Source: a virus
Reading direction: 5' to 3' (one strand)
DNA: 48,322 bases
Virus record (IMG/VR): IMGVR_UViG_3300026521_000291
Location: 1-48,322 of that record
Shown here: positions 1-48,218 of the stretch, one piece after another
How positions within the stretch are numbered: position 1 is the first letter of the stretch
How the letters are laid out: the number at the start of each line of letters is the position of its first letter
Position numbers and translations under genes: made by a program
Notes under the pieces: generated by a model
Databases searched by the model: none
What the model saw: the letters and a program-made list of their open reading frames with translations, nothing else
Told to the model about the DNA's origin: nothing

Positions 1-127
1 TATAACCTCTTTATAACCTCTTTATAACCTCTTTATAACCTCTTTATAACCTCTTTATAACCTCTTTATAACCTCTTTATAACCTCTTTATAACCTCTTT
101 ATAACCTCTTTATAACCTCTTTATAAC
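1..127. repeat. 11-bp tandem array, 11 copies
   Basis: Unit TATAACCTCTT repeats perfectly 11 times from base 1, followed by a partial copy. The array is cut by the window edge, so its true length is unknown. It ends about 28 bases before the Shine-Dalgarno of the first gene. The unit contains TAA, and since 11 is not a multiple of three the array holds stop codons in all three forward frames. Confidence 0.97.
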
Positions 128-164: not shown

Positions 165-863
165 ATGAATCAAAAAACAATTACTAATATATTAAATTCT
201 GTTAATTTAGATACTTGGATAATAAGCGACACACACCTTGGGCATAAAAACGTATTAGATTTCGAACCAAACAGATTAACTAGAATGCTCATCGATGGTT
301 ATTTTGCTGATGAGCATGATACATGGGTGGTAGATACATGGAATTCTATTATTAAACCAAATGATACTGTTTTACATTTAGGTGATTTTGCTTTTAAAGG
401 AGTAAATGATTTTATTAAGCGACTTAATGGGAATATTATTTTTGTTCTCGGCAATCACGATGATAAACCTAAAGCACAAAAATGGAAAGGGTCAAATGTT
501 TTGGATGGATTTTATTTTTATTACAATAATGAAATTTGTAAGATAATGGATATAGATGATCAGTTATTTAGTGGGTTTATAAAAGAATTAGGAAATATAA
601 AAATTTTATTCAGCCATTATCCAGTTTTTCATAATTGTGAATATGATAGAAAAAATAAATTAATTAACAAAAGAATTAAATTATTAGAAAATATTTATAT
701 TTCACACAAATGCGAACTCAATATACATGGTCACACACATTCAATTAATAGCACATTTGATAACTCTAGAAATGCATCACTAGAAAACATAGATATGAGA
801 CCACAAAAAATTAGAGAAATAATACTAAACAATCATCAACATAAATTTAATTGGAACATTTAA
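165..863 (+). CDS. Calcineurin-like metallophosphoesterase
   Basis: This 232-residue protein has the ordered metal-binding motifs of the calcineurin-like phosphoesterase superfamily: D22-x-H24 in SDTHLGH, G73-D74 in HLGDF, GNHD at 96-99, a lone H151 in FSHYP, and HGHTH at 188-192. The family hydrolyses phosphomono- or phosphodiesters with a two-metal centre; the substrate here cannot be read from sequence. AGGAG sits 5 bases before the ATG, so the start is well supported. It follows the tandem array at the window edge and precedes the intein-bearing ATPase, which has a similar AGGAGTTAT leader. Given the RNA-repair genes further on, a nucleic-acid end-processing role is possible but only inferred. 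Confidence 0.9.
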   Translation: MNQKTITNILNSVNLDTWIISDTHLGHKNVLDFEPNRLTRMLIDGYFADEHDTWVVDTWNSIIKPNDTVLHLGDFAFKGVNDFIKRLNGNIIFVLGNHDDKPKAQKWKGSNVLDGFYFYYNNEICKIMDIDDQLFSGFIKELGNIKILFSHYPVFHNCEYDRKNKLINKRIKLLENIYISHKCELNIHGHTHSINSTFDNSRNASLENIDMRPQKIREIILNNHQHKFNWNI

Positions 864-945
864 TTTGGTTGTGTTTAATTTGAATTACATTATTAATTCA
901 TAAATAAACAACAATTAAATAAACTTATAAAATTAGGAGTTATAA

Positions 946-2868
946 ATGATTAAACAAAAACATATAAAAAGTATTATTGAATCAATTAAAAAAGATTCAA
1001 TATCAGAAGCTTCATTTAGCGAAAATAAAGTTAAAAAAGTGGCTGATTTACTTTCAAGTATTCTTGGTAAAGATCTTGGTGGTGATTTTAAACTACTTGG
1101 TGGTTCTTTAGGTTATGAAACATTTAAGAAAAAAGGATACGGCGAAGGTAAAGGTTTCAAATACATAAATAAATCTGGTAACATGATTCGTTTTGGGTGG
1201 TTAAAAAAATCTAAATCACAATTTTCAATTAATGTTGTAGATTTTTGGGATGCTTCACAAGGTGCAGAGTGGTCTAAACCATCAATTACTATTAAATTAG
1301 AAGATTGGATGAATATAGTAGATGTTGTTTCAGAATTGAAAGATGTATTAATTCATGGTGATGATTCTATGTTGACAGTTAAAGAAAGTATAGATGAATC
1401 TAATAAAATGAAATTATTTGAATCTGCTCCAAGAAAAATGATAGCATATGCAAAATCAAAGGATGTTGAATATGAAGGTGAATCGGAACATAAATTAATT
1501 AAAAAACTAAAAGATTATGGTGTTTGGAATGCTGATGAATATAAAGGGTTTAAAGTAACTAAAGGCGAAGTTGAAAAAAATTCAGGTGAAGATTTATTTA
1601 AAGAAGCTGAGAAAAAACTCAAAACTCAAAAATATGCCGATCCAGATTTAGTATTTGATGATATCGAAAAATTAACTAAAGTTGTTGCACTTGGTGCACA
1701 AAATGCTCTTATTGTTGCTGGTATGGCTGGTATTGGTAAATGTTTAGGTGGTGGAACTCCTATAAAAACAACATTAGATAAAAGCGCACATACTATACAA
1801 GATATTTTTGAAATTATTGCAAAAAATGAAGATCATGAATTTAAACTATATGAAATGTATACACCTCAAACTGATATTTTTGTTCTTGATGAAAACGGAA
1901 AAGATGTAAAAGTTAATGGTATGATAGTTAAAAAAGAACCAACGGTTGATTTAATTACTAATATTGGGGTTCTTCGTGTTGCTGAGGAACATGCACTACA
2001 AGGTGAATTTTCACAAGTATTTGTAAAACAACTCAAAAAAGGTGATAAAATTTACAACACCAAAGAAGGTTTAGTTGAAATTTTAAATATTATGAAAGGT
2101 GATAATTCATTTGTTTATGATTTATCTGTTGATTCAGAAACACATTTATATCAAGATTTTTATGGTTATGTTCACCACAATACATTCCATGTTGAAAAAC
2201 AATTAAATTCAATGTTAGGTTCTCCAAGCGGACCAGATGCAAAATGGAGATATAGACAAGGTGCTAAACTTTCACCAATGGGTTTATATGTGGATTTATT
2301 TATGAATAAAGATGATATGACTATTGTATATGATGATTCAGATTCAGTATGGTCTGATAAAGATTCAATTAATATGCTTAAAGCTGCATTAGATACAAAA
2401 AAAGTTAGACAATTAACTTGGACATCTCCAAGAACTCAAAATGTTGAAATGCTATCACCAGAAGAAAGAGAAGAATATTTTGAGAAATTATATACTGCTT
2501 TAAAAGAAAAACCAGAAGATGTTGGTACAAAAATTAAATTACCAAATACATTTGAATTTACTTCAAGAATTATTTTTATATCTAATCTTGCTGCTTCTAA
2601 ATTCGAAGGTGGTGATATGGGTGCTATTGCTTCACGTTCTTTATTTATGAATATTAATCTTACGAGAGAAGATGTTATTAAAAGAATCGAAAGTATTTTA
2701 CCATTTGTTGAACCAGATATTCCAATGGATTTAAAATTGCAAGTAGTTGAGCAATTAGCACAAGGAACAAACCATTTAACTATGCGTGCTGTTATTGCTG
2801 GTATTGCTGTCCAATCTGCAGGATTTAATGATTGGGAAAGATTAGCTAAAACATATGCTGGAAGTTAA
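946..2868 (+). CDS. Phage AAA-type ATPase interrupted by a mini-intein
   Basis: The 640-residue product reads as a P-loop ATPase of about 493 residues carrying a 147-residue insertion. The N-terminal region (about 1-150) is an unrecognised domain. The Walker A motif GMAGIGK (259-265) is broken directly after its lysine; the expected threonine appears at residue 413 after the insertion. Downstream are a Walker B-like MTIVYDDSD (aspartates 463-464), a sensor-like N547 in IFISN and an arginine-finger-like R564. Similar ATPases of unassigned role occur in T4-like phages. AGGAG lies a few bases before the ATG. A strong terminator hairpin follows the stop. Without splicing the ATPase would lack a functional P-loop. 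The enzymatic role is unknown. Confidence 0.85.
   Translation: MIKQKHIKSIIESIKKDSISEASFSENKVKKVADLLSSILGKDLGGDFKLLGGSLGYETFKKKGYGEGKGFKYINKSGNMIRFGWLKKSKSQFSINVVDFWDASQGAEWSKPSITIKLEDWMNIVDVVSELKDVLIHGDDSMLTVKESIDESNKMKLFESAPRKMIAYAKSKDVEYEGESEHKLIKKLKDYGVWNADEYKGFKVTKGEVEKNSGEDLFKEAEKKLKTQKYADPDLVFDDIEKLTKVVALGAQNALIVAGMAGIGKCLGGGTPIKTTLDKSAHTIQDIFEIIAKNEDHEFKLYEMYTPQTDIFVLDENGKDVKVNGMIVKKEPTVDLITNIGVLRVAEEHALQGEFSQVFVKQLKKGDKIYNTKEGLVEILNIMKGDNSFVYDLSVDSETHLYQDFYGYVHHNTFHVEKQLNSMLGSPSGPDAKWRYRQGAKLSPMGLYVDLFMNKDDMTIVYDDSDSVWSDKDSINMLKAALDTKKVRQLTWTSPRTQNVEMLSPEEREEYFEKLYTALKEKPEDVGTKIKLPNTFEFTSRIIFISNLAASKFEGGDMGAIASRSLFMNINLTREDVIKRIESILPFVEPDIPMDLKLQVVEQLAQGTNHLTMRAVIAGIAVQSAGFNDWERLAKTYAGS
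1741..2181 (+). other. Mini-intein in the Walker A motif of the ATPase
   Basis: Residues 266-412 of the host protein have intein hallmarks. The first residue is Cys (block A, CLGGGTPI). A block B-like segment is RVAEEH with H349. Block F is VYDLSVDSETHLY. The end is VHHN, followed by Thr413 as the +1 nucleophile. The Hint fold is minimal in size, and no homing-endonuclease motif (LAGLIDADG or HNH) fits in 147 residues. The block B Thr of the usual TxxH motif is Ala346, an atypical change. Removing it restores GMAGIGKT. Splicing activity is inferred, not seen. Confidence 0.9.
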
Positions 2869-2871
2869 TTA

Positions 2872-2897
2872 AAAGAGTTGGTATTTACCAACTCTTT
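2872..2897 (+). terminator. Hairpin terminator after the intein-bearing ATPase
   Basis: A perfect 12-bp stem (AAAGAGTTGGTA with TACCAACTCTTT) and a 2-base loop begin 3 bases after the stop. The right arm ends in TTT only, so the U-tract is short. It lies 34 bases upstream of a copy of the recurrent promoter element. Confidence 0.75.
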
Positions 2898-2931
2898 ATA
2901 ACTGAATATAATTTCAGTTATATGTCATCCA

Positions 2932-2958
2932 AATAATCTTATAATATATTATATAAAA
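2932..2958 (+). promoter_or_regulatory. Recurrent promoter-like element, copy A
   Basis: A 27-bp sequence containing the palindrome TATAATATATTATA is identical to copies at 6033, 7608, 16160 and 17747. It supplies TATAAT- and TATATT-type -10 hexamers. The 5-prime leader after it (to the ATG at 2986) is nearly identical to the leader of the gene at 6087. Confidence 0.75.
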
Positions 2959-2985
2959 AGAAACAAAAGATTAAAGGATTCAAAA

Positions 2986-3411
2986 ATGCAAACTTCAAAC
3001 CAAACTTCAAACCAAACTTCAAACCAAACTTCAAACCAAACTTCAAACCAAACTTCAAACCAAACTTCAAACCAAACTTCAAACCAACCAATTCTAAAAA
3101 GAAATATTAAAGAAAATCAAACAGTATTTTATTTTAGACCAGCGAAAGCTTATATCGGAGAAATAAAAGGTCTTAAAAATAAAATTATGGAAATGCAATT
3201 CTCACATATTCAAGGTGGTGTTACATATTTCAAATACAAAAATTCATGGAAAAGAATTTACGATGGTATTAAAGGTAAATTGTATCACACACAAGAGGAA
3301 GCAGAAAAAGCCCAACAACAAATTATAAACGAAGCAAAAAAAGAAGCTATTAGATTGGCAGAAAATGAAATTAAAAGTCTAGAAAATAGTATTATTAAAC
3401 TTCGTTCTTAA
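2986..3411 (+). CDS. Hypothetical protein with N-terminal QTSN repeat
   Basis: I do not recognise this 141-residue protein. Directly after the initiator Met come eight perfect Gln-Thr-Ser-Asn tetrapeptides, encoded by eight identical 12-bp units. Residues about 40-95 look like a small globular domain rich in aromatic and basic residues (FYFRPAKAY, FKYKNSWKRIY). The C-terminal 45 residues are charged and probably helical (EEAEKAQQQ and EAKKEAIRLAENEIKSLENSI). AAAGGATTC precedes the ATG. It has its own promoter element. The repeat tail looks like replication-slippage expansion and is probably disordered. Confidence 0.75.
   Translation: MQTSNQTSNQTSNQTSNQTSNQTSNQTSNQTSNQPILKRNIKENQTVFYFRPAKAYIGEIKGLKNKIMEMQFSHIQGGVTYFKYKNSWKRIYDGIKGKLYHTQEEAEKAQQQIINEAKKEAIRLAENEIKSLENSIIKLRS
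2989..3084 (+). repeat. Coding 12-bp array, 8 copies (QTSN)
   Basis: The unit CAAACTTCAAAC is repeated perfectly eight times immediately after the start codon. No synonymous divergence is visible, implying recent expansion or active homogenisation. Confidence 0.97.
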
Positions 3412-5932: not shown

Positions 5933-6000
5933 TAAATACTATAATAGCGTAAATACTATAATAGCGTAAATACTATAATAGCGTAAATACTATAATAGCG
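5933..6000 (+). repeat. 17-bp tandem array, 4 copies, each with TATAAT
   Basis: The unit TAAATACTATAATAGCG is perfect in four copies. Each copy has a consensus -10 hexamer TATAAT preceded by AC and followed by AGCG. The array sits 32 bases upstream of a promoter element copy (6033). Confidence 0.95.
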
Positions 6001-6032
6001 TAAATTTATATAATTCAGTAGTTTGTCATCTA

Positions 6033-8859: not shown

Positions 8860-9033
8860 ATGGATTTCAATAAATTAAATGAAGTGTTAAAAAATTTAGT
8901 TAGCATTAAACATATTATGGATAGCGATGATATTAAAGTATATAATTTTATTATGACATTAGAAGCAACTACTCATAATATTAATTTAGTGAAGAAATTT
9001 AGTGATGATATGATGAATAAATACATCATCTAA
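8860..9033 (+). CDS. Small hypothetical protein, 57 residues
   Basis: A short reading frame with an excellent AAGGAG 5 bases before its ATG, 20 bases after the transglycosylase stop. The predicted protein is helical and amphipathic (NKLNEVLKNLVSIKHIMDSD, then FIMTLEATTHNINLVKKFSD). No family recognised. Its stop codon begins the 11-bp tandem array that follows. The Shine-Dalgarno and tight spacing support it being a real gene. Confidence 0.7.
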   Translation: MDFNKLNEVLKNLVSIKHIMDSDDIKVYNFIMTLEATTHNINLVKKFSDDMMNKYII

Positions 9034-9109
9034 ATTAAACACAAATTAAACACAAATTAAACACAAATTAAACACAAATTAAACACAAATTAAACACAAA
9101 TTAAACACA
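9033..9109. repeat. 11-bp tandem array, 7 copies
   Basis: Unit AATTAAACACA is repeated seven times perfectly, starting at the last base of the upstream TAA and running to the Shine-Dalgarno of the SPFH gene. The unit contains TAA. Confidence 0.96.
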
Positions 9110-9124
9110 AATTAAAGGAATACA

Positions 9125-10456
9125 ATGTTTACAAACAAAGATGGTAATTTAAAAATTGGAAAAATTATAGCATATGCTATTGGTGGTCTGCTAACTTTTA
9201 GTCTTATTATGGGAAGCTTCTATATTGTTGGTGGTACAGAATATGCTGTTGAAAGAACACCAAGTGGAGAAATGCAAGGAGTAGTTGAACCAGGAATTCA
9301 TTTTAAAGTTCCTTTTTTATCTAGTGTTCATTTTTACGATCAGTTTCAAACAGTGGCATATGTGGACGATGAAGACGGTGAAGGTGTTGGCACAATGAAA
9401 AGAATTAATTTTGCTGATACTTATGGTGGCTATGTAGGTGGAACTATTAGGTATAAATTATCTAGTAATCCAGATTTGTTAGTAGAAATGCACAAAGCAT
9501 ACGTTAATGAAAATAACCTAATTGAAAGTGGTTTAAAACCTATTTCAAAGCAATTACTTGTATATACAGCAAATCAGATTACTGGTGAAGATTTTATGCA
9601 AGGTGGACAAAACGAATATCAAATTCGTGTAGAAGATCAAGGAAATAATGGTTTATATATTACTAAACGGGAAAAGATTTTAGTTAAGAAAAATACATCA
9701 GATGTTGGCTTAAAGGATCAGAATCCACAAAAAAGACCACAAAGAGATTCTTATATTTTTAGAACAGTTATTCAAAAAGATAAAAATGGCATTCCTTTAA
9801 GACAAGAATTGCCTATTACAAAATATGGTATTAAGATTGTTCAAGTTACAATCGATGATTTTAGACCAGAGAAAAAACTAAATGACTTTATCAATAGAAA
9901 GAAAGAACAGATAGCAATTCGTCAAAAACTTGTAGAAGAACAAGAAAACGAGAGACAGTCTGCAGTAACAGCTGAACTTCGTGGTAATCGTGAACGTATC
10001 GAAGCAAGACAGAAAATGTTAAAAGAAAAAGATGCTGCTGTTATTGAAGCACAAAAAAGAGTGGATTTAGAACAAAAAGAAGCAGAGCTTCAAATTGTGC
10101 GTAAGAAAAAAGAATTAGAAATTGCAAAGGCAAATGAAGGCATTCAAATTGCTAATGCCATCGCAGCTAAACACCAAGCACAAGCAATCGAATCAAAGGG
10201 GTTAGCAGAGGCTAAAGTTAAAAAAGCTATGTATAATGCAGTTAGAAAAGATGTATTAGTGTTAGAGGTGAAAAAAATTACAGAAGTTGCAAAATATAAA
10301 GCACTTAAAGAATCACAAATCGTTCTTCCAAAAACAGTAATTATGAGTGGCGGAAGCGGGAAAGATGCTAGTTCATCTTTAGCACAATTAACAGATTTAT
10401 CTATTATGGGGAAAATTGACCAAATGGATAAAGAGAATAAAAATAAAAAAGAATAA
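9125..10456 (+). CDS. SPFH/band-7 (prohibitin/stomatin-like) membrane protein
   Basis: A 443-residue protein with one N-terminal membrane segment (about 14-36, IIAYAIGGLLTFSLIMGSFY). An SPFH domain follows: ERTPSGEMQGVVEPGIHFKV at about 43-62, continuing to about 265. A long Glu/Lys/Ala coiled coil (about 260-390) with EIAKANEGIQIANAIAAKHQ-type heptads comes next. Members form oligomeric cages on the inner membrane and often bind proteases. Phage versions could protect against host proteolysis or shape the membrane during infection; that role is inferred. AAAGGA precedes the ATG. The next gene is a lipoprotein, so the pair may form an envelope module. Confidence 0.88.
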   Translation: MFTNKDGNLKIGKIIAYAIGGLLTFSLIMGSFYIVGGTEYAVERTPSGEMQGVVEPGIHFKVPFLSSVHFYDQFQTVAYVDDEDGEGVGTMKRINFADTYGGYVGGTIRYKLSSNPDLLVEMHKAYVNENNLIESGLKPISKQLLVYTANQITGEDFMQGGQNEYQIRVEDQGNNGLYITKREKILVKKNTSDVGLKDQNPQKRPQRDSYIFRTVIQKDKNGIPLRQELPITKYGIKIVQVTIDDFRPEKKLNDFINRKKEQIAIRQKLVEEQENERQSAVTAELRGNRERIEARQKMLKEKDAAVIEAQKRVDLEQKEAELQIVRKKKELEIAKANEGIQIANAIAAKHQAQAIESKGLAEAKVKKAMYNAVRKDVLVLEVKKITEVAKYKALKESQIVLPKTVIMSGGSGKDASSSLAQLTDLSIMGKIDQMDKENKNKKE

Positions 10457-19267: not shown

Positions 19268-20260
19268 ATGTATTGCGATTTCAATCCAAAATTATTTAAA
19301 GAATTTATAAGCATAAAAAAGAAAATTAAACCAGAGTTGGCAGATGATTGGGAAATCATTCCATATTCATATAATACAAATTCTGGAATGATGCTTTATA
19401 GCGAAAAATTAAATCAAAAAATTGCTGATATTGATTTAAGAAGATTTTTACAATTTAGTAAAGATCAAAATCTTACCATTCAAGGTCTCAAACTCCAAGG
19501 AACATATGTTGTTGGAAATGATCGTTCTGTTTATACAAAGGATATGTTTAATAAATGGAAAGATAAATTTGATACCAGAACAGAGATTATAATTAATAAA
19601 AAGGATTATAAAGTAGGTCATAAATATTTAACTCCTTGTGGTGCAAAAGTGATATATTTAGGTTATAGATATGTTGCTAGTATTAAAGATGATTATGATT
19701 ATAAAAAAATAACAAAAATAACTAAAAAATATTATGTATGTGAACCACAAACAGAAAAATCTAAATTTACTCATAAACACACAAGGAGAATTTTTGAACT
19801 AAAACAAAAATTCACAGAAGATTTAGGAAAAGTTATGTATGATAATGAAGATATTGATTTGTATTTAGAATCCTTCAAATCACGAAATATTAATATAGCA
19901 TGTTTCGAAAAAGAAAAACCAAAAAATGTAGAATTTGGTTTAGTAGAATTATCTGATTTTGATAAAGAATCTTCAAAAAAATATTACCACGCTGAAAATT
20001 ATTATAGATGTTTGGTTGTCAAAATTGACAACAAATATTATGGTGGTTATTTAAATGTTAAAAATAACAAAAATGACAAAAATGACAAAATTGGCAAAAT
20101 TGGCAAAATTGGCAAAATTAACAAAAAAAGCTTAATACATTTCGATATAAAAACATTATCCTTAGGAAAACCATTACTAAGTTTATATGAAAGGGGTGAA
20201 TTAGTAGATGTGGATAAATCATATAGAATTGGATTAATTGATTCAAATTCTAAATTATAA
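19268..20260 (+). CDS. Hypothetical protein, 330 residues
   Basis: No family recognised. The N-terminal half has DWEIIPYSYNTNSGMMLYSE and KLQGTYVVGNDRSVYTKDMF. The middle is basic and Tyr-rich (GYRYVASIKDDYDYKKITKI). Near residues 265-285 is a Lys-Asn-Asp / Lys-Ile-Gly tripeptide repeat encoded by 9-bp units; the preceding and following segments (ENYYRCLVVKIDNKYYGGYL; SLIHFDIKTLSLGKPLLSLY) look like parts of one domain, so the repeat probably expands a surface loop. AAAGG precedes the ATG. The stop codon lies in a 15-bp tandem array. Confidence 0.65.
   Translation: MYCDFNPKLFKEFISIKKKIKPELADDWEIIPYSYNTNSGMMLYSEKLNQKIADIDLRRFLQFSKDQNLTIQGLKLQGTYVVGNDRSVYTKDMFNKWKDKFDTRTEIIINKKDYKVGHKYLTPCGAKVIYLGYRYVASIKDDYDYKKITKITKKYYVCEPQTEKSKFTHKHTRRIFELKQKFTEDLGKVMYDNEDIDLYLESFKSRNINIACFEKEKPKNVEFGLVELSDFDKESSKKYYHAENYYRCLVVKIDNKYYGGYLNVKNNKNDKNDKIGKIGKIGKINKKSLIHFDIKTLSLGKPLLSLYERGELVDVDKSYRIGLIDSNSKL
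20061..20123 (+). repeat. Coding 9-bp array (KND/KIG)
   Basis: About seven 9-bp units (AAAATGACA, then AAATTGGCA) encode Lys-Asn-Asp and Lys-Ile-Gly tripeptides in frame within the 330-residue protein. Confidence 0.9.
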
Positions 20261-20340
20261 TATATTGAATTATAATATATTGAATTATAATATATTGAAT
20301 TATAATATATTGAATTATAATATATTGAATTATAATATGT
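20253..20340. repeat. 15-bp tandem array, 5 copies
   Basis: AATTATAATATATTG repeats five times perfectly plus a partial copy. It starts inside the last codons of the upstream gene, and its stop TAA (20258-20260) is part of the first unit. Each unit has a TATAAT. Confidence 0.95.
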
Positions 20341-20521: not shown

Positions 20522-20782
20522 ATGAAAAATGCAACTAATACACAAACAAATGAAGTAATTAAACCACTAAAAGTATATATCACCGATATTTCAAAAGATG
20601 ATGGGTTTTACCCTCTCTTTAATAAAATAAGAGGTGAGGTCTTTATAATTAGAGACGCATTTACTAATACTTCTGATGATGATAAATATAAAGTAATTTA
20701 TGGAAGATTTGTTAATCAAAAATTAGATTCTAATTTAAAAAATGAAATTATGTTTGTAAAAGCAAAATATAAATTATTATAA
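20522..20782 (+). CDS. Hypothetical protein, 86 residues
   Basis: No family recognised. AAAGG precedes the ATG. The sequence has IKPLKVYITDISKDDGFYPL, then KIRGEVFIIRDAF and DKYKVIYGRFVNQKL, a beta-rich pattern like a small barrel. The final codons, AAA TTA TTA TAA, are the start of the 18-bp tandem unit that follows. Confidence 0.6.
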   Translation: MKNATNTQTNEVIKPLKVYITDISKDDGFYPLFNKIRGEVFIIRDAFTNTSDDDKYKVIYGRFVNQKLDSNLKNEIMFVKAKYKLL

Positions 20783-20830
20783 ATTAATAAATTATTATAA
20801 ATTAATAAATTATTATAAATTAATAAATTA
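20771..20830. repeat. 18-bp tandem array, 3 copies
   Basis: AAATTATTATAAATTAAT repeats three times plus a partial copy. The first unit contains the final codons and stop of the upstream gene. Confidence 0.93.
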
Positions 20831-20863
20831 TATATTATTCAAATTAACTATAAAGGAAAACAA

Positions 20864-22693
20864 ATGGCAAAAAATGATTATAAATTTAAAGAATTGGATG
20901 ATATTCAATGGTTATTATTAAGACCTCATAATATTATTGGAACTATGCAAAATATAAAACAAACAGGTTTTGTTTTAAAAGATGGAAAATTTGTATATGA
21001 AGATTATACCATAGTTCCAGCATTTTTTAAAATTATTAATGAAATTATAGATAATTCGATTGATGCTTATATTAAAAGTAATTTTACTTGTGGTAATAAA
21101 ATAGATATTACGATGACTGATGATACTATTACAGTCAAAGATAATGGACCCGGTATTCCAATAGAAAAACATGGTGATTCATATATACCAGTTACTGCTT
21201 GGGGCAAACCTAGAGCAGGTACAAATTTTGATGATTCAAAAAATGTTGGATCATTAGGAATGAATGGTGTTGGTAGTTTTGCAACAGTAGTATTTAGTAA
21301 ATTATTTATAGGCGAAACTGCAGATGGTAAACATAAATTTAAAGTCGAATTTAAAAATAATCTATCAGAAACAATTTTTTCTAAACCTACCAAATCAACA
21401 AAAAGAGGTACTACAGTAACATTTAAACCAGATTTAGAAAGATTTGGATTAACCAAAATAGATAAAATATATAAAGATTTGGTGTATCAACGATTAATTA
21501 ATATAGCATTTAGTTATAAAGATTTACAATTTACATTTAATAAAAAAGCAATTAAAGTTAATTCAAAAACATATATTTCACAGTTTGGTGATAATGCAAC
21601 AATGTTTGAAGGTGAAAATTATGTTGTTGCATTTTTGCCAAACCCAGATGATGATTTTAGATTTTTTGCATATACAAATGGATTAGCAAATACAAAACAA
21701 GGTTCACAAATAGATTATTTTCTAGAAAGGGTTGTTAACACTAAATTAAAAGATAAACTTCAAAAAAAATATAAATCTATTAAAGCTGGTGACATAAAAA
21801 ATAAACTAACAATGATAGTATTTTTTAGAGGGTTTAAAACTCCAAAATTTGATGGTCAAGCAAAAGAACAATTTACATCACCAGCTTCAAAAATTAGCGA
21901 ATTCCTTGGAAAAATTGATTTTGATAAATGGGTAGATAAAATATACCAAAATAAAAGTATTGTAGAACCTATTATAGAAGTGTATAGAATTAAAGAAGAA
22001 TTTGAAAAAAGGAAAGCACTTAAAGGGTTAGAAAAACCTAAGAAAAGAATTGATACCAAAAAATACACCCCAGCTATTGGACGCAGAAAATATTTGTTAG
22101 TTGCAGAAGGAGAATCTGCTTCGGGTGGTCTGATGCCTGCTTTAGGTAGAGAAAATTTTGGTTATTTTGAACTTAAAGGTAAACCTTTGAATGCATATGA
22201 TGCTACTCAATCAAAATTTCAACAAAATGCGGAATTGAGTTTATTATATAACATTATTAAAACAGAAGGTTATGAAATGGTTATTTATGCCACAGATCAG
22301 GATCTTGATGGTTATACAATTCGTGGTCTATTAAATGGATTTTTTTACAAATATTTAAGAAGTGATTGGTTATTAAATGGTAAAGTCGGATCATTAAAAA
22401 CACCCATTCGCGGAAAAATAAAAAATGGAAAAATCATAGATTGGGTTTATAATTTATCAGATGGCGAAAAACTATCAAATCAAGGACAGTCAAAATACTT
22501 TAAAGGTATTGGATCTTGGAAACCAGAATGGTTGCAAACAGTAATTAAAAAAGATGGCATAGAAAAAATGATTGATATGTGGGAATTTGATGAAGCAGCG
22601 GATGAGACTATAGATTCTTGGTTAAATGGTAAAAGAGTAGATATCAGAAAAGAATATTTAAGAAATAATGATTTTGACTTGATTAAGTTGTAA
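20864..22693 (+). CDS. 39: DNA topoisomerase II large subunit (T4 gp39/gp60-type, unsplit)
   Basis: A 609-residue GyrB-type subunit. The GHKL ATPase motifs are NEIIDNSIDA (59-68), DNGPGIP (93-99) and GMNGVGS (132-138). The transducer domain follows, then the TOPRIM domain with AEGESASGG (acidic E) and TDQDLDG. In T4 this protein is split into gp39 and gp60; here ATPase and TOPRIM parts are continuous, as in many relatives. With the medium subunit at 24207 it forms a type IIA topoisomerase for replication. AAAGG precedes the ATG. The stop is the first TAA of a 10-bp tandem array. Confidence 0.95.
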   Translation: MAKNDYKFKELDDIQWLLLRPHNIIGTMQNIKQTGFVLKDGKFVYEDYTIVPAFFKIINEIIDNSIDAYIKSNFTCGNKIDITMTDDTITVKDNGPGIPIEKHGDSYIPVTAWGKPRAGTNFDDSKNVGSLGMNGVGSFATVVFSKLFIGETADGKHKFKVEFKNNLSETIFSKPTKSTKRGTTVTFKPDLERFGLTKIDKIYKDLVYQRLINIAFSYKDLQFTFNKKAIKVNSKTYISQFGDNATMFEGENYVVAFLPNPDDDFRFFAYTNGLANTKQGSQIDYFLERVVNTKLKDKLQKKYKSIKAGDIKNKLTMIVFFRGFKTPKFDGQAKEQFTSPASKISEFLGKIDFDKWVDKIYQNKSIVEPIIEVYRIKEEFEKRKALKGLEKPKKRIDTKKYTPAIGRRKYLLVAEGESASGGLMPALGRENFGYFELKGKPLNAYDATQSKFQQNAELSLLYNIIKTEGYEMVIYATDQDLDGYTIRGLLNGFFYKYLRSDWLLNGKVGSLKTPIRGKIKNGKIIDWVYNLSDGEKLSNQGQSKYFKGIGSWKPEWLQTVIKKDGIEKMIDMWEFDEAADETIDSWLNGKRVDIRKEYLRNNDFDLIKL

Positions 22694-22776
22694 TTGGTTG
22701 TAATTGGTTGTAATTGGTTGTAATTGGTTGTAATTGGTTGTAATTGGTTGTAATTGGTTGTAATTGGTTGTAATTA
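22691..22776. repeat. 10-bp tandem array, 8 copies
   Basis: TAATTGGTTG repeats eight times perfectly. The first TAA is the stop codon of the topoisomerase gene. The 10-bp period places TAA in every forward frame. Confidence 0.97.
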
Positions 22777-36796: not shown

Positions 36797-37447
36797 ATGG
36801 CAATCAAAGATTTAAGAAAACAAAACGAAGAATTAGTAGCAGTTAAGGAAGCAAAAGAGCTTTTAATAGCAAATGGATTTAGTGTATCAGAATCTGATGA
36901 GGTTGAAATTGAAATTGATTCAGTTTTAGAAACATTAAAGGAAAGTGGATATTTAGTAGTACCAAAAGATGATATTGATTTAGTAGAAAAACAAATGGAA
37001 ACTAAAATTATAGAAAAACTTAAAGAAAGTGGTTATATTATTTTAGATGAGGAAGAAGTTAAATTAGTTGACGAAGTTCTAGAAGATAAAGTAAAAGAAA
37101 GTTTAATTGAAAAAGGTTACACTATTTTAGATGAAGAAATGATGGATAAAGTAGATGAAGAATTAGAAAATATTCTTGCTGAAAAATTAGCTGAATCATT
37201 AAACGAAGAAATGAAGAAAGAAGATCCAAAAGAAGATCCAAAAGAAGATCCAAAAGAAGATCCAAAAGAAGATCCAAAAGAAGATCCAAAAGAAGATCCA
37301 AAAGAAGATCCAAAAGAAGATCCAAAAGATAAAAAACCTACAAAAGAAGCATTTCTTGAAAGTTTAATCCAAGGTGAAGAAACAGAAGATGGTATTAAGT
37401 CTTCATTAGGTGAATCTACTGCTAGTAGATTAAGTTCTTTAATCTAA
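36797..37447 (+). CDS. Head-cluster protein with 28-residue and EDPK repeats
   Basis: A 216-residue acidic protein. Three clear 28-residue repeats begin at 47, 75 and 103 (LKESGYLVV, LKESGYIIL, LIEKGYTIL), with a weaker fourth at 23. Nine perfect Glu-Asp-Pro-Lys repeats follow (residues 142-177). The C-terminus has EAFLESLIQGE, close to the SFMESIIQ terminus of the protease-scaffold fusion. A scaffold-like or head-decorating role is inferred. AGGAG precedes the ATG. Confidence 0.65.
   Translation: MAIKDLRKQNEELVAVKEAKELLIANGFSVSESDEVEIEIDSVLETLKESGYLVVPKDDIDLVEKQMETKIIEKLKESGYIILDEEEVKLVDEVLEDKVKESLIEKGYTILDEEMMDKVDEELENILAEKLAESLNEEMKKEDPKEDPKEDPKEDPKEDPKEDPKEDPKEDPKEDPKDKKPTKEAFLESLIQGEETEDGIKSSLGESTASRLSSLI
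37220..37327 (+). repeat. Coding 12-bp array, 9 copies (EDPK)
   Basis: GAAGATCCAAAA is repeated nine times with no synonymous change, indicating recent expansion. Confidence 0.97.
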
Positions 37448-42628: not shown

Positions 42629-42643
42629 TCTTCAACAAAATAA
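42610..42643 (+). terminator. Hairpin enclosing the tail tube stop codon
   Basis: TTATTTTGTTGA and TCAACAAAATAA form a perfect 12-bp stem; the TAG stop (42626-42628) is in the 10-base loop. The right arm runs into the following tandem array. Confidence 0.7.
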
Positions 42644-42740
42644 ATTTTAAATAAATAATAAATTTTAAATAAATAATAAATTTTAAATAAATAATAAATT
42701 TTAAATAAATAATAAATTTTAAATAAATAATAAATTTTAA
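42641..42740. repeat. 18-bp tandem array, 5 copies
   Basis: TAAATTTTAAATAAATAA repeats five times perfectly plus a 10-base partial copy, filling the spacer to the next gene. Confidence 0.96.
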
Positions 42741-48052: not shown

Positions 48053-48091
48053 AAAAGTCTAACTGTGTAAGTCATACAGTTAGACTTTTTT
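48053..48091 (+). terminator. Intrinsic terminator after the tape measure
   Basis: AAAAGTCTAACTGT pairs with ACAGTTAGACTTTT (14-bp stem, 9-base loop), followed by a six-base T-tract. It is the clearest factor-independent terminator in the window. Confidence 0.9.
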
Positions 48092-48218
48092 CTATGTCTG
48101 TGTAAGTCATACAGTTAGACTTTTTTCTATGTCTGTGTAAGTCATACAGTTAGACTTTTTTCTATGTCTGTGTAAGTCATACAGTTAGACTTTTTTCTAT
48201 GTCTGTGTAAGTCATACA
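48064..48218 (+). repeat. 35-bp tandem array, 4.4 copies, derived from the terminator
   Basis: A 35-bp unit starting TGTGTAAGTCATACAGTTAG is repeated four times perfectly plus 15 bases. It is the loop, right arm and T-tract of the terminator plus CTATGTC. Only the first copy has the left arm. The rest of the gap to 48322 is AT-rich; CTATATAATAAAA near 48271 could be a -10 region, but no gene is visible. Confidence 0.95.

What the first reader, a model, noticed from the sequence alone, without database searches (positions are those of the whole stretch)
1741..2181. Mini-intein inserted exactly within the Walker A GK/T of a phage ATPase
Residues 266-412 start with Cys, have block A/B/F-like segments and end in HHN followed by Thr. 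Deleting them restores GMAGIGKT. It is endonuclease-free and only 147 residues. The block B Thr of TxxH is replaced by Ala, so chemistry may be slow or conditional. ATPase activity would depend on splicing, making this a possible switch.
Basis: partly seen in the sequence, partly recalled or inferred. Interest (0 to 1): 0.75.

Follow-up and report, generated by a model that had tools for sequence, protein, structure and literature searches.

The report
Mini-intein splitting a phage ATPase P-loop
A T4-type phage gene for an ATP-using protein carries a small self-removing protein insert (an intein) exactly inside the ATP-binding loop, so the enzyme must splice itself before it can bind ATP; this is a well-known kind of element in a host protein for which I found no earlier intein record, and a related phage has the same intein in broken, two-gene form.

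Summary
Residues 266-412 (nt 1741-2181) of the 640-aa ORF 946-2868 are an in-frame insert between Lys and Thr of the Walker A motif of a T4 NrdC.10-type AAA ATPase (phrog_1250). Every uninterrupted homologue checked has a clean GK[T/S] junction. The insert is a class 1 mini-intein: an HMM of phage inteins built without it matches at 1e-6, the AlphaFold model is a Hint fold matching the gp41-1 and VidaL inteins in the PDB, and Cys1, block B His, block F Asp, His-Asn and +1 Thr are all present. A relative (L136) carries the homologous intein at the same GK^T site, but as an atypically split intein (14-aa IntN) with a NUMOD3/PD-(D/E)XK-type endonuclease gene between the halves. The window copy is the fused, endonuclease-free form. 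A switch is possible but has no evidence. GK^T is a textbook intein site, so this is a new member of a known kind. The extra value is a contiguous/split pair at one site.

The parts
946..1740 (+). N-extein: first part of NrdC.10-type AAA ATPase, ending in Walker A GMAGIGK
1720..1740 (+). Walker A motif up to Lys (GMAGIGK); interrupted before Thr
1741..2181 (+). Class 1 mini-intein, 147 aa, C1 to N147
   Evidence: HMM 1.1e-6, Hint fold, same-site relative L136
1741..1770 (+). Block A, CLGGGTPIKT with Cys1 nucleophile
1972..2001 (+). Block B region, around RVAEEHALQ; catalytic His84 at 1990-1992, Ala81 at 1981-1983
   Evidence: invariant His column
2107..2181 (+). Block F/G, SFVYDLSVDSETHLYQDFYGYVHHN; Asp127 at 2119-2121, His146-Asn147 at 2176-2181
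   Evidence: invariant columns D127, H135, H146, N147
2182..2868 (+). C-extein, starts with +1 Thr (Walker A Thr), then Walker B and rest of ATPase, stop included

Best explanation
ORF 946-2868 encodes a precursor of a NrdC.10-type AAA ATPase of a T4-like phage with a class 1 mini-intein between the Walker A Lys and Thr. After translation the insert folds as a Hint domain. Cys1 makes an N-S acyl shift helped by the block B His, the thioester passes to Thr+1, Asn147 cyclises, and the two exteins join with a native peptide bond. This gives a 493-aa ATPase with an intact GMAGIGKT and a free 147-aa intein. The precursor should be unable to bind ATP normally, so splicing is a required maturation step. 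The intein has no endonuclease and cannot home by itself; it probably persists because imprecise loss would destroy the P-loop. A relative carries the same intein in split form with an endonuclease between the halves, so the window copy is a fused, endonuclease-free allele. Shown: the anatomy, homology and site; predicted: the fold. Inferred: splicing activity, loss of ATPase activity in the precursor, reason for persistence, and any evolutionary direction.
For: Clean empty site in all uninterrupted homologues. HMM of phage inteins without the window: E 1.1e-6. hhalign to three other phage inteins: 97.2%, E 3.9e-11. Profile with relatives matches solved inteins VidaL 2.5e-16 and gp41-1 6.8e-12. 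AF2 with 21 sequences: pLDDT 77.6; the top 20 Foldseek PDB hits are inteins, gp41-1 1.3e-7, VidaL TM 0.72. Same-site intein in L136, 35% identical over 144 aa, all catalytic residues kept; clade support 99/95. GK^T is described as the classic P-loop intein site (PMC5050341).
Against: No curated intein model hits the window copy (Pfam PT-HINT only 0.058, below cut-off; no NCBIfam intein hit). The N-terminal 35 residues of the model have low confidence. No experiment shows splicing.
Confidence: 0.94

Rival explanations
1. Conditional splicing switch: the intein splices only under some condition, and so controls when the ATPase becomes active.
For: GK^T position makes ATP binding depend on splicing; a P-loop mini-intein in archaeal RadA is conditional (PMC5790916).
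Against: The proposed reason, block B Ala, is the norm in this intein family including fast VidaL. No regulatory feature found. Cys1 is the only Cys in the insert, so there is no disulphide trap within the intein.
Confidence: 0.05
2. In-frame self-splicing intron or translational bypass element: the insert is removed or skipped at RNA level.
For: Insert is bounded cleanly and in frame.
Against: No Rfam intron match in 800-3000. Protein-level homology to inteins, correct catalytic residues and Hint fold. In L136 the halves are separate proteins.
Confidence: 0.01
3. Decayed or inactive intein: insert still in frame but splicing-dead, so the ATPase is non-functional or tolerates the insert.
For: No endonuclease, no close relatives, weak match to curated models.
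Against: All splicing residues kept although the intein differs at about 65% of positions from L136; extein motifs intact; no stops.
Confidence: 0.04

Closest known systems
TerL1-a and other GK^T P-loop inteins (mycobacteriophage TerL; Vibrio phage VP-1/VAP7 TerL, L010/L093)
   [quoted passage not shown] class 1 residues; block B AxxH in the VP-1 copy.
   Different: Other host protein; about 27-30% identity over the aligned intein for VP-1, whose copy is 179 aa.
VidaL (PDB 6vgv), atypically split intein; here found at GESG^SGKS of phage UvsX
   Same: Hint fold, AxxH block B; VidaL's short 16-aa N-half ends near the point where L136 is split.
   Different: Window intein is contiguous, sits at GK^T in another ATPase, about 20% identical.
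gp41-1 split intein (PDB 6qaz)
   Same: Best Foldseek match; phage replication ATPase host; non-Thr block B.
   Different: gp41-1 is split and ends THN; the window copy is contiguous and ends HHN.
L136 NrdC.10 split intein (IMGVR_UViG_3300025697_000210), found here
   Same: Same host protein, same GK^T site, sister in the tree, same residues including AxxH and HHN|T.
   Different: Split after 14 residues with a 361-aa NUMOD3/PD-(D/E)XK-like endonuclease gene between the halves.

Membership tests
Class 1 intein | In-frame insert at a conserved site with intein-less homologues showing a clean junction | tested here: met
Class 1 intein | Nucleophile Cys/Ser/Thr at position 1 | tested here: met
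   C266
Class 1 intein | Block B His and block F Asp | tested here: met
   H84 and D127 of the insert are invariant across 21 inteins
Class 1 intein | C-terminal His-Asn and +1 Cys/Ser/Thr | tested here: met
   H411-N412 then T413
Class 1 intein | Hint fold | tested here: met
   Predicted only: AF2 pLDDT 77.6, Foldseek to solved inteins
Class 1 intein | Match to curated intein models | tested here: inconclusive
   No Pfam/NCBIfam intein hit for the window copy, but relatives in A6 hit PF14890 and TIGR01443/TIGR01445
Class 1 intein | Protein splicing shown | not testable with these tools
   Needs expression
Split intein | Two separate genes for the halves | tested here: not met
   One open frame through the insert
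Mini-intein | No homing endonuclease domain | tested here: met
   147 aa, no endonuclease family hit, mostly covered by the Hint profile
Group I/II intron | Catalytic RNA structure | tested here: not met
   No Rfam intron hit at 800-3000
NrdC.10-type AAA ATPase (phrog_1250) | Homology over the exteins to T4-type NrdC.10 with Walker A/B | tested here: met
   PHROG 1.6e-24

The most novel reading that the evidence does not exclude
The window intein is a natural re-fusion of a formerly split, endonuclease-carrying P-loop intein: loss of the endonuclease and stop codon rejoined the halves into one working mini-intein, so fracture of inteins in phages is reversible at a single site.
Probability: 0.3. 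Interest if true: 0.45.

Novelty: new member of a known kind. Interest (0 to 1): 0.33.

Why it matters
It adds a host protein, the NrdC.10-type ATPase, to the P-loop inteins of phages, and gives a matched pair at one site: contiguous and endonuclease-free in this phage, split with an endonuclease between the halves in a relative. Such pairs let one test whether inteins fracture once or can be rejoined. It also shows that AxxH in block B should not be read as a sign of a weak intein.

Tried and rejected
Single-sequence AlphaFold of the insert failed (pLDDT 41) and was not used. Curated libraries gave no intein hit. Direct scans for close relatives of the whole protein, of the C-extein and of the VP-1 intein found none or one. 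Alignment A3 was too diverse to scan. Intron reading rejected. Slow-chemistry reading of block B Ala rejected after tallying relatives. The deep tree has many weak forks; only the window + L136 pair is used. The bacterial genome scan found nine NrdC.10 relatives: eight with an uninterrupted P-loop, one where no Walker A was detected (L156, 27% match); none with an intein.

Full report
What was checked. The ORF 946-2868 (+) encodes 640 residues. Residues 266-412 (1741-2181) start with Cys and end His-Asn, followed by Thr. The window is an IMG/VR virus record of 48,322 bases with T4-type head and tail genes; its terminase and capsid are nearest to Rhizobium phages such as RHph_TM39 at 35-42% identity.

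The host protein. The exteins match phrog_1250 (1.6e-24) and T4-type NrdC.10 proteins, which carry an AAA ATPase motif (PMC1524935). The function of NrdC.10 is unknown. Joining the flanks restores GMAGIGKTF, which aligns with GAAGIGKTF and similar in CC31, Erwinia, Vibrio and Acinetobacter phages. All 80 IMG/VR relatives and the nearer L002, L091, L092 have an uninterrupted P-loop. So the insert has a clean empty site.

Is it an intein? Curated models miss it (PT-HINT 0.058). But relatives tell a clear story. The seven weak tblastn hits of the insert in phage records are in three kinds of P-loop protein: TerL at GK^T, and split inteins in PhoH and gp41 helicase a step earlier, before TGK[ST]. 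hhalign to three of these gives 97.2%. A profile including them matches solved inteins, VidaL first. From VidaL-like patterns 32 phage loci were fetched; an HMM of them, without the window, hits the insert at 1.1e-6, while none of 2000 shuffles is reported. AlphaFold with this alignment gives a Hint fold (pLDDT 77.6, over 90 in much of the C-terminal part), and the top Foldseek PDB matches are inteins. Cys1, block B His, block F Asp, His-Asn and +1 Thr are all there.

The same site in a relative. A pattern for GxAGxGKC followed by Leu/Phe in IMG/VR found L136. There a NrdC.10 N-half ends GMAGIGK|CFCGETEMDVEFPL-stop; a 361-aa gene with NUMOD3 and PD-(D/E)XK-like matches follows; then a gene starts with IntC and runs IHHN|TYTVV into the C-extein. 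Intein identity to the window is 35%, extein identity 33% and 43%, so the intein has diverged about as much as its host, which fits old common descent at this site. The pair is a supported clade (99/95). L133 has a similar split N-half in a NrdC.10 homologue (GSAGVGK|CLFSDVEIPVEIK-stop) and then the contig ends; a phosphoesterase gene like the window's 165-863 lies upstream.

How it works. By the standard class 1 pathway the precursor yields a 493-aa ATPase with intact Walker A. Since Lys and Thr of the P-loop are 147 residues apart in the precursor, ATP binding should require splicing; this is inferred. TerL1-a inteins at the same GK^T position are called classic P-loop insertions, and splicing is argued there to be needed for the active site (PMC5050341).

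In the alignment Ala is in 17 of 21, Ser 3, Asn 1, Thr none; L136 also has Ala. These sequences were gathered as VidaL relatives, so the tally describes that family, not all inteins. VidaL has Ala and a half-time of about 1 min; gp41-1 has Ser and about 5 s. The inference of slow splicing therefore fails. A switch remains possible in principle (RadA, PMC5790916) but nothing here supports it.

Evolution. In the UvsX site three states occur: split with an endonuclease-like ORF between halves, split without it, and contiguous without it. At the NrdC.10 site the split-with-endonuclease state (L136) and the contiguous state (window) are seen. Which came first is not decided.

Verdict. Real, ordinary in kind, with a new host protein as far as the searched collections show, and a useful split/contiguous pair.

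Noticed in passing
window 1-127, 2989-3087, 5933-6005, 9032-9116, 20253-20338, 20769-20831, 22687-22775, 37217-37329, 42639-42740, 48063-48218: Many perfect (100%) tandem arrays of different units, 10-35 bp long, mostly between genes and some inside ORFs; both contig ends lie at or near such arrays. Unusual density, unexplained.
   Followed up: no
L126:6226-6702 (minus strand), also L135, L140: Contiguous 159-aa GK^T mini-intein in a clamp-loader-like ATPase, ending IIHHN|TT.
   Followed up: partly
L138, L141, L134: Likely split-intein N-halves at GK^ of clamp-loader-like and ClpA-like ATPases.
   Followed up: no
L113, L117, L121, L122: VidaL-identical or near-identical IntC sits in phage UvsX at GESG^SGKS; the UvsX site shows split+endonuclease-like ORF, split, and contiguous states.
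   Followed up: partly
L142, L143: Other viral GK^ inteins in large NTPases, not VidaL-like by the HMM.
   Followed up: no
window 9125-10456: 443-aa SPFH/prohibitin-like protein encoded in a phage (impression from the sequence only, not searched).
   Followed up: no
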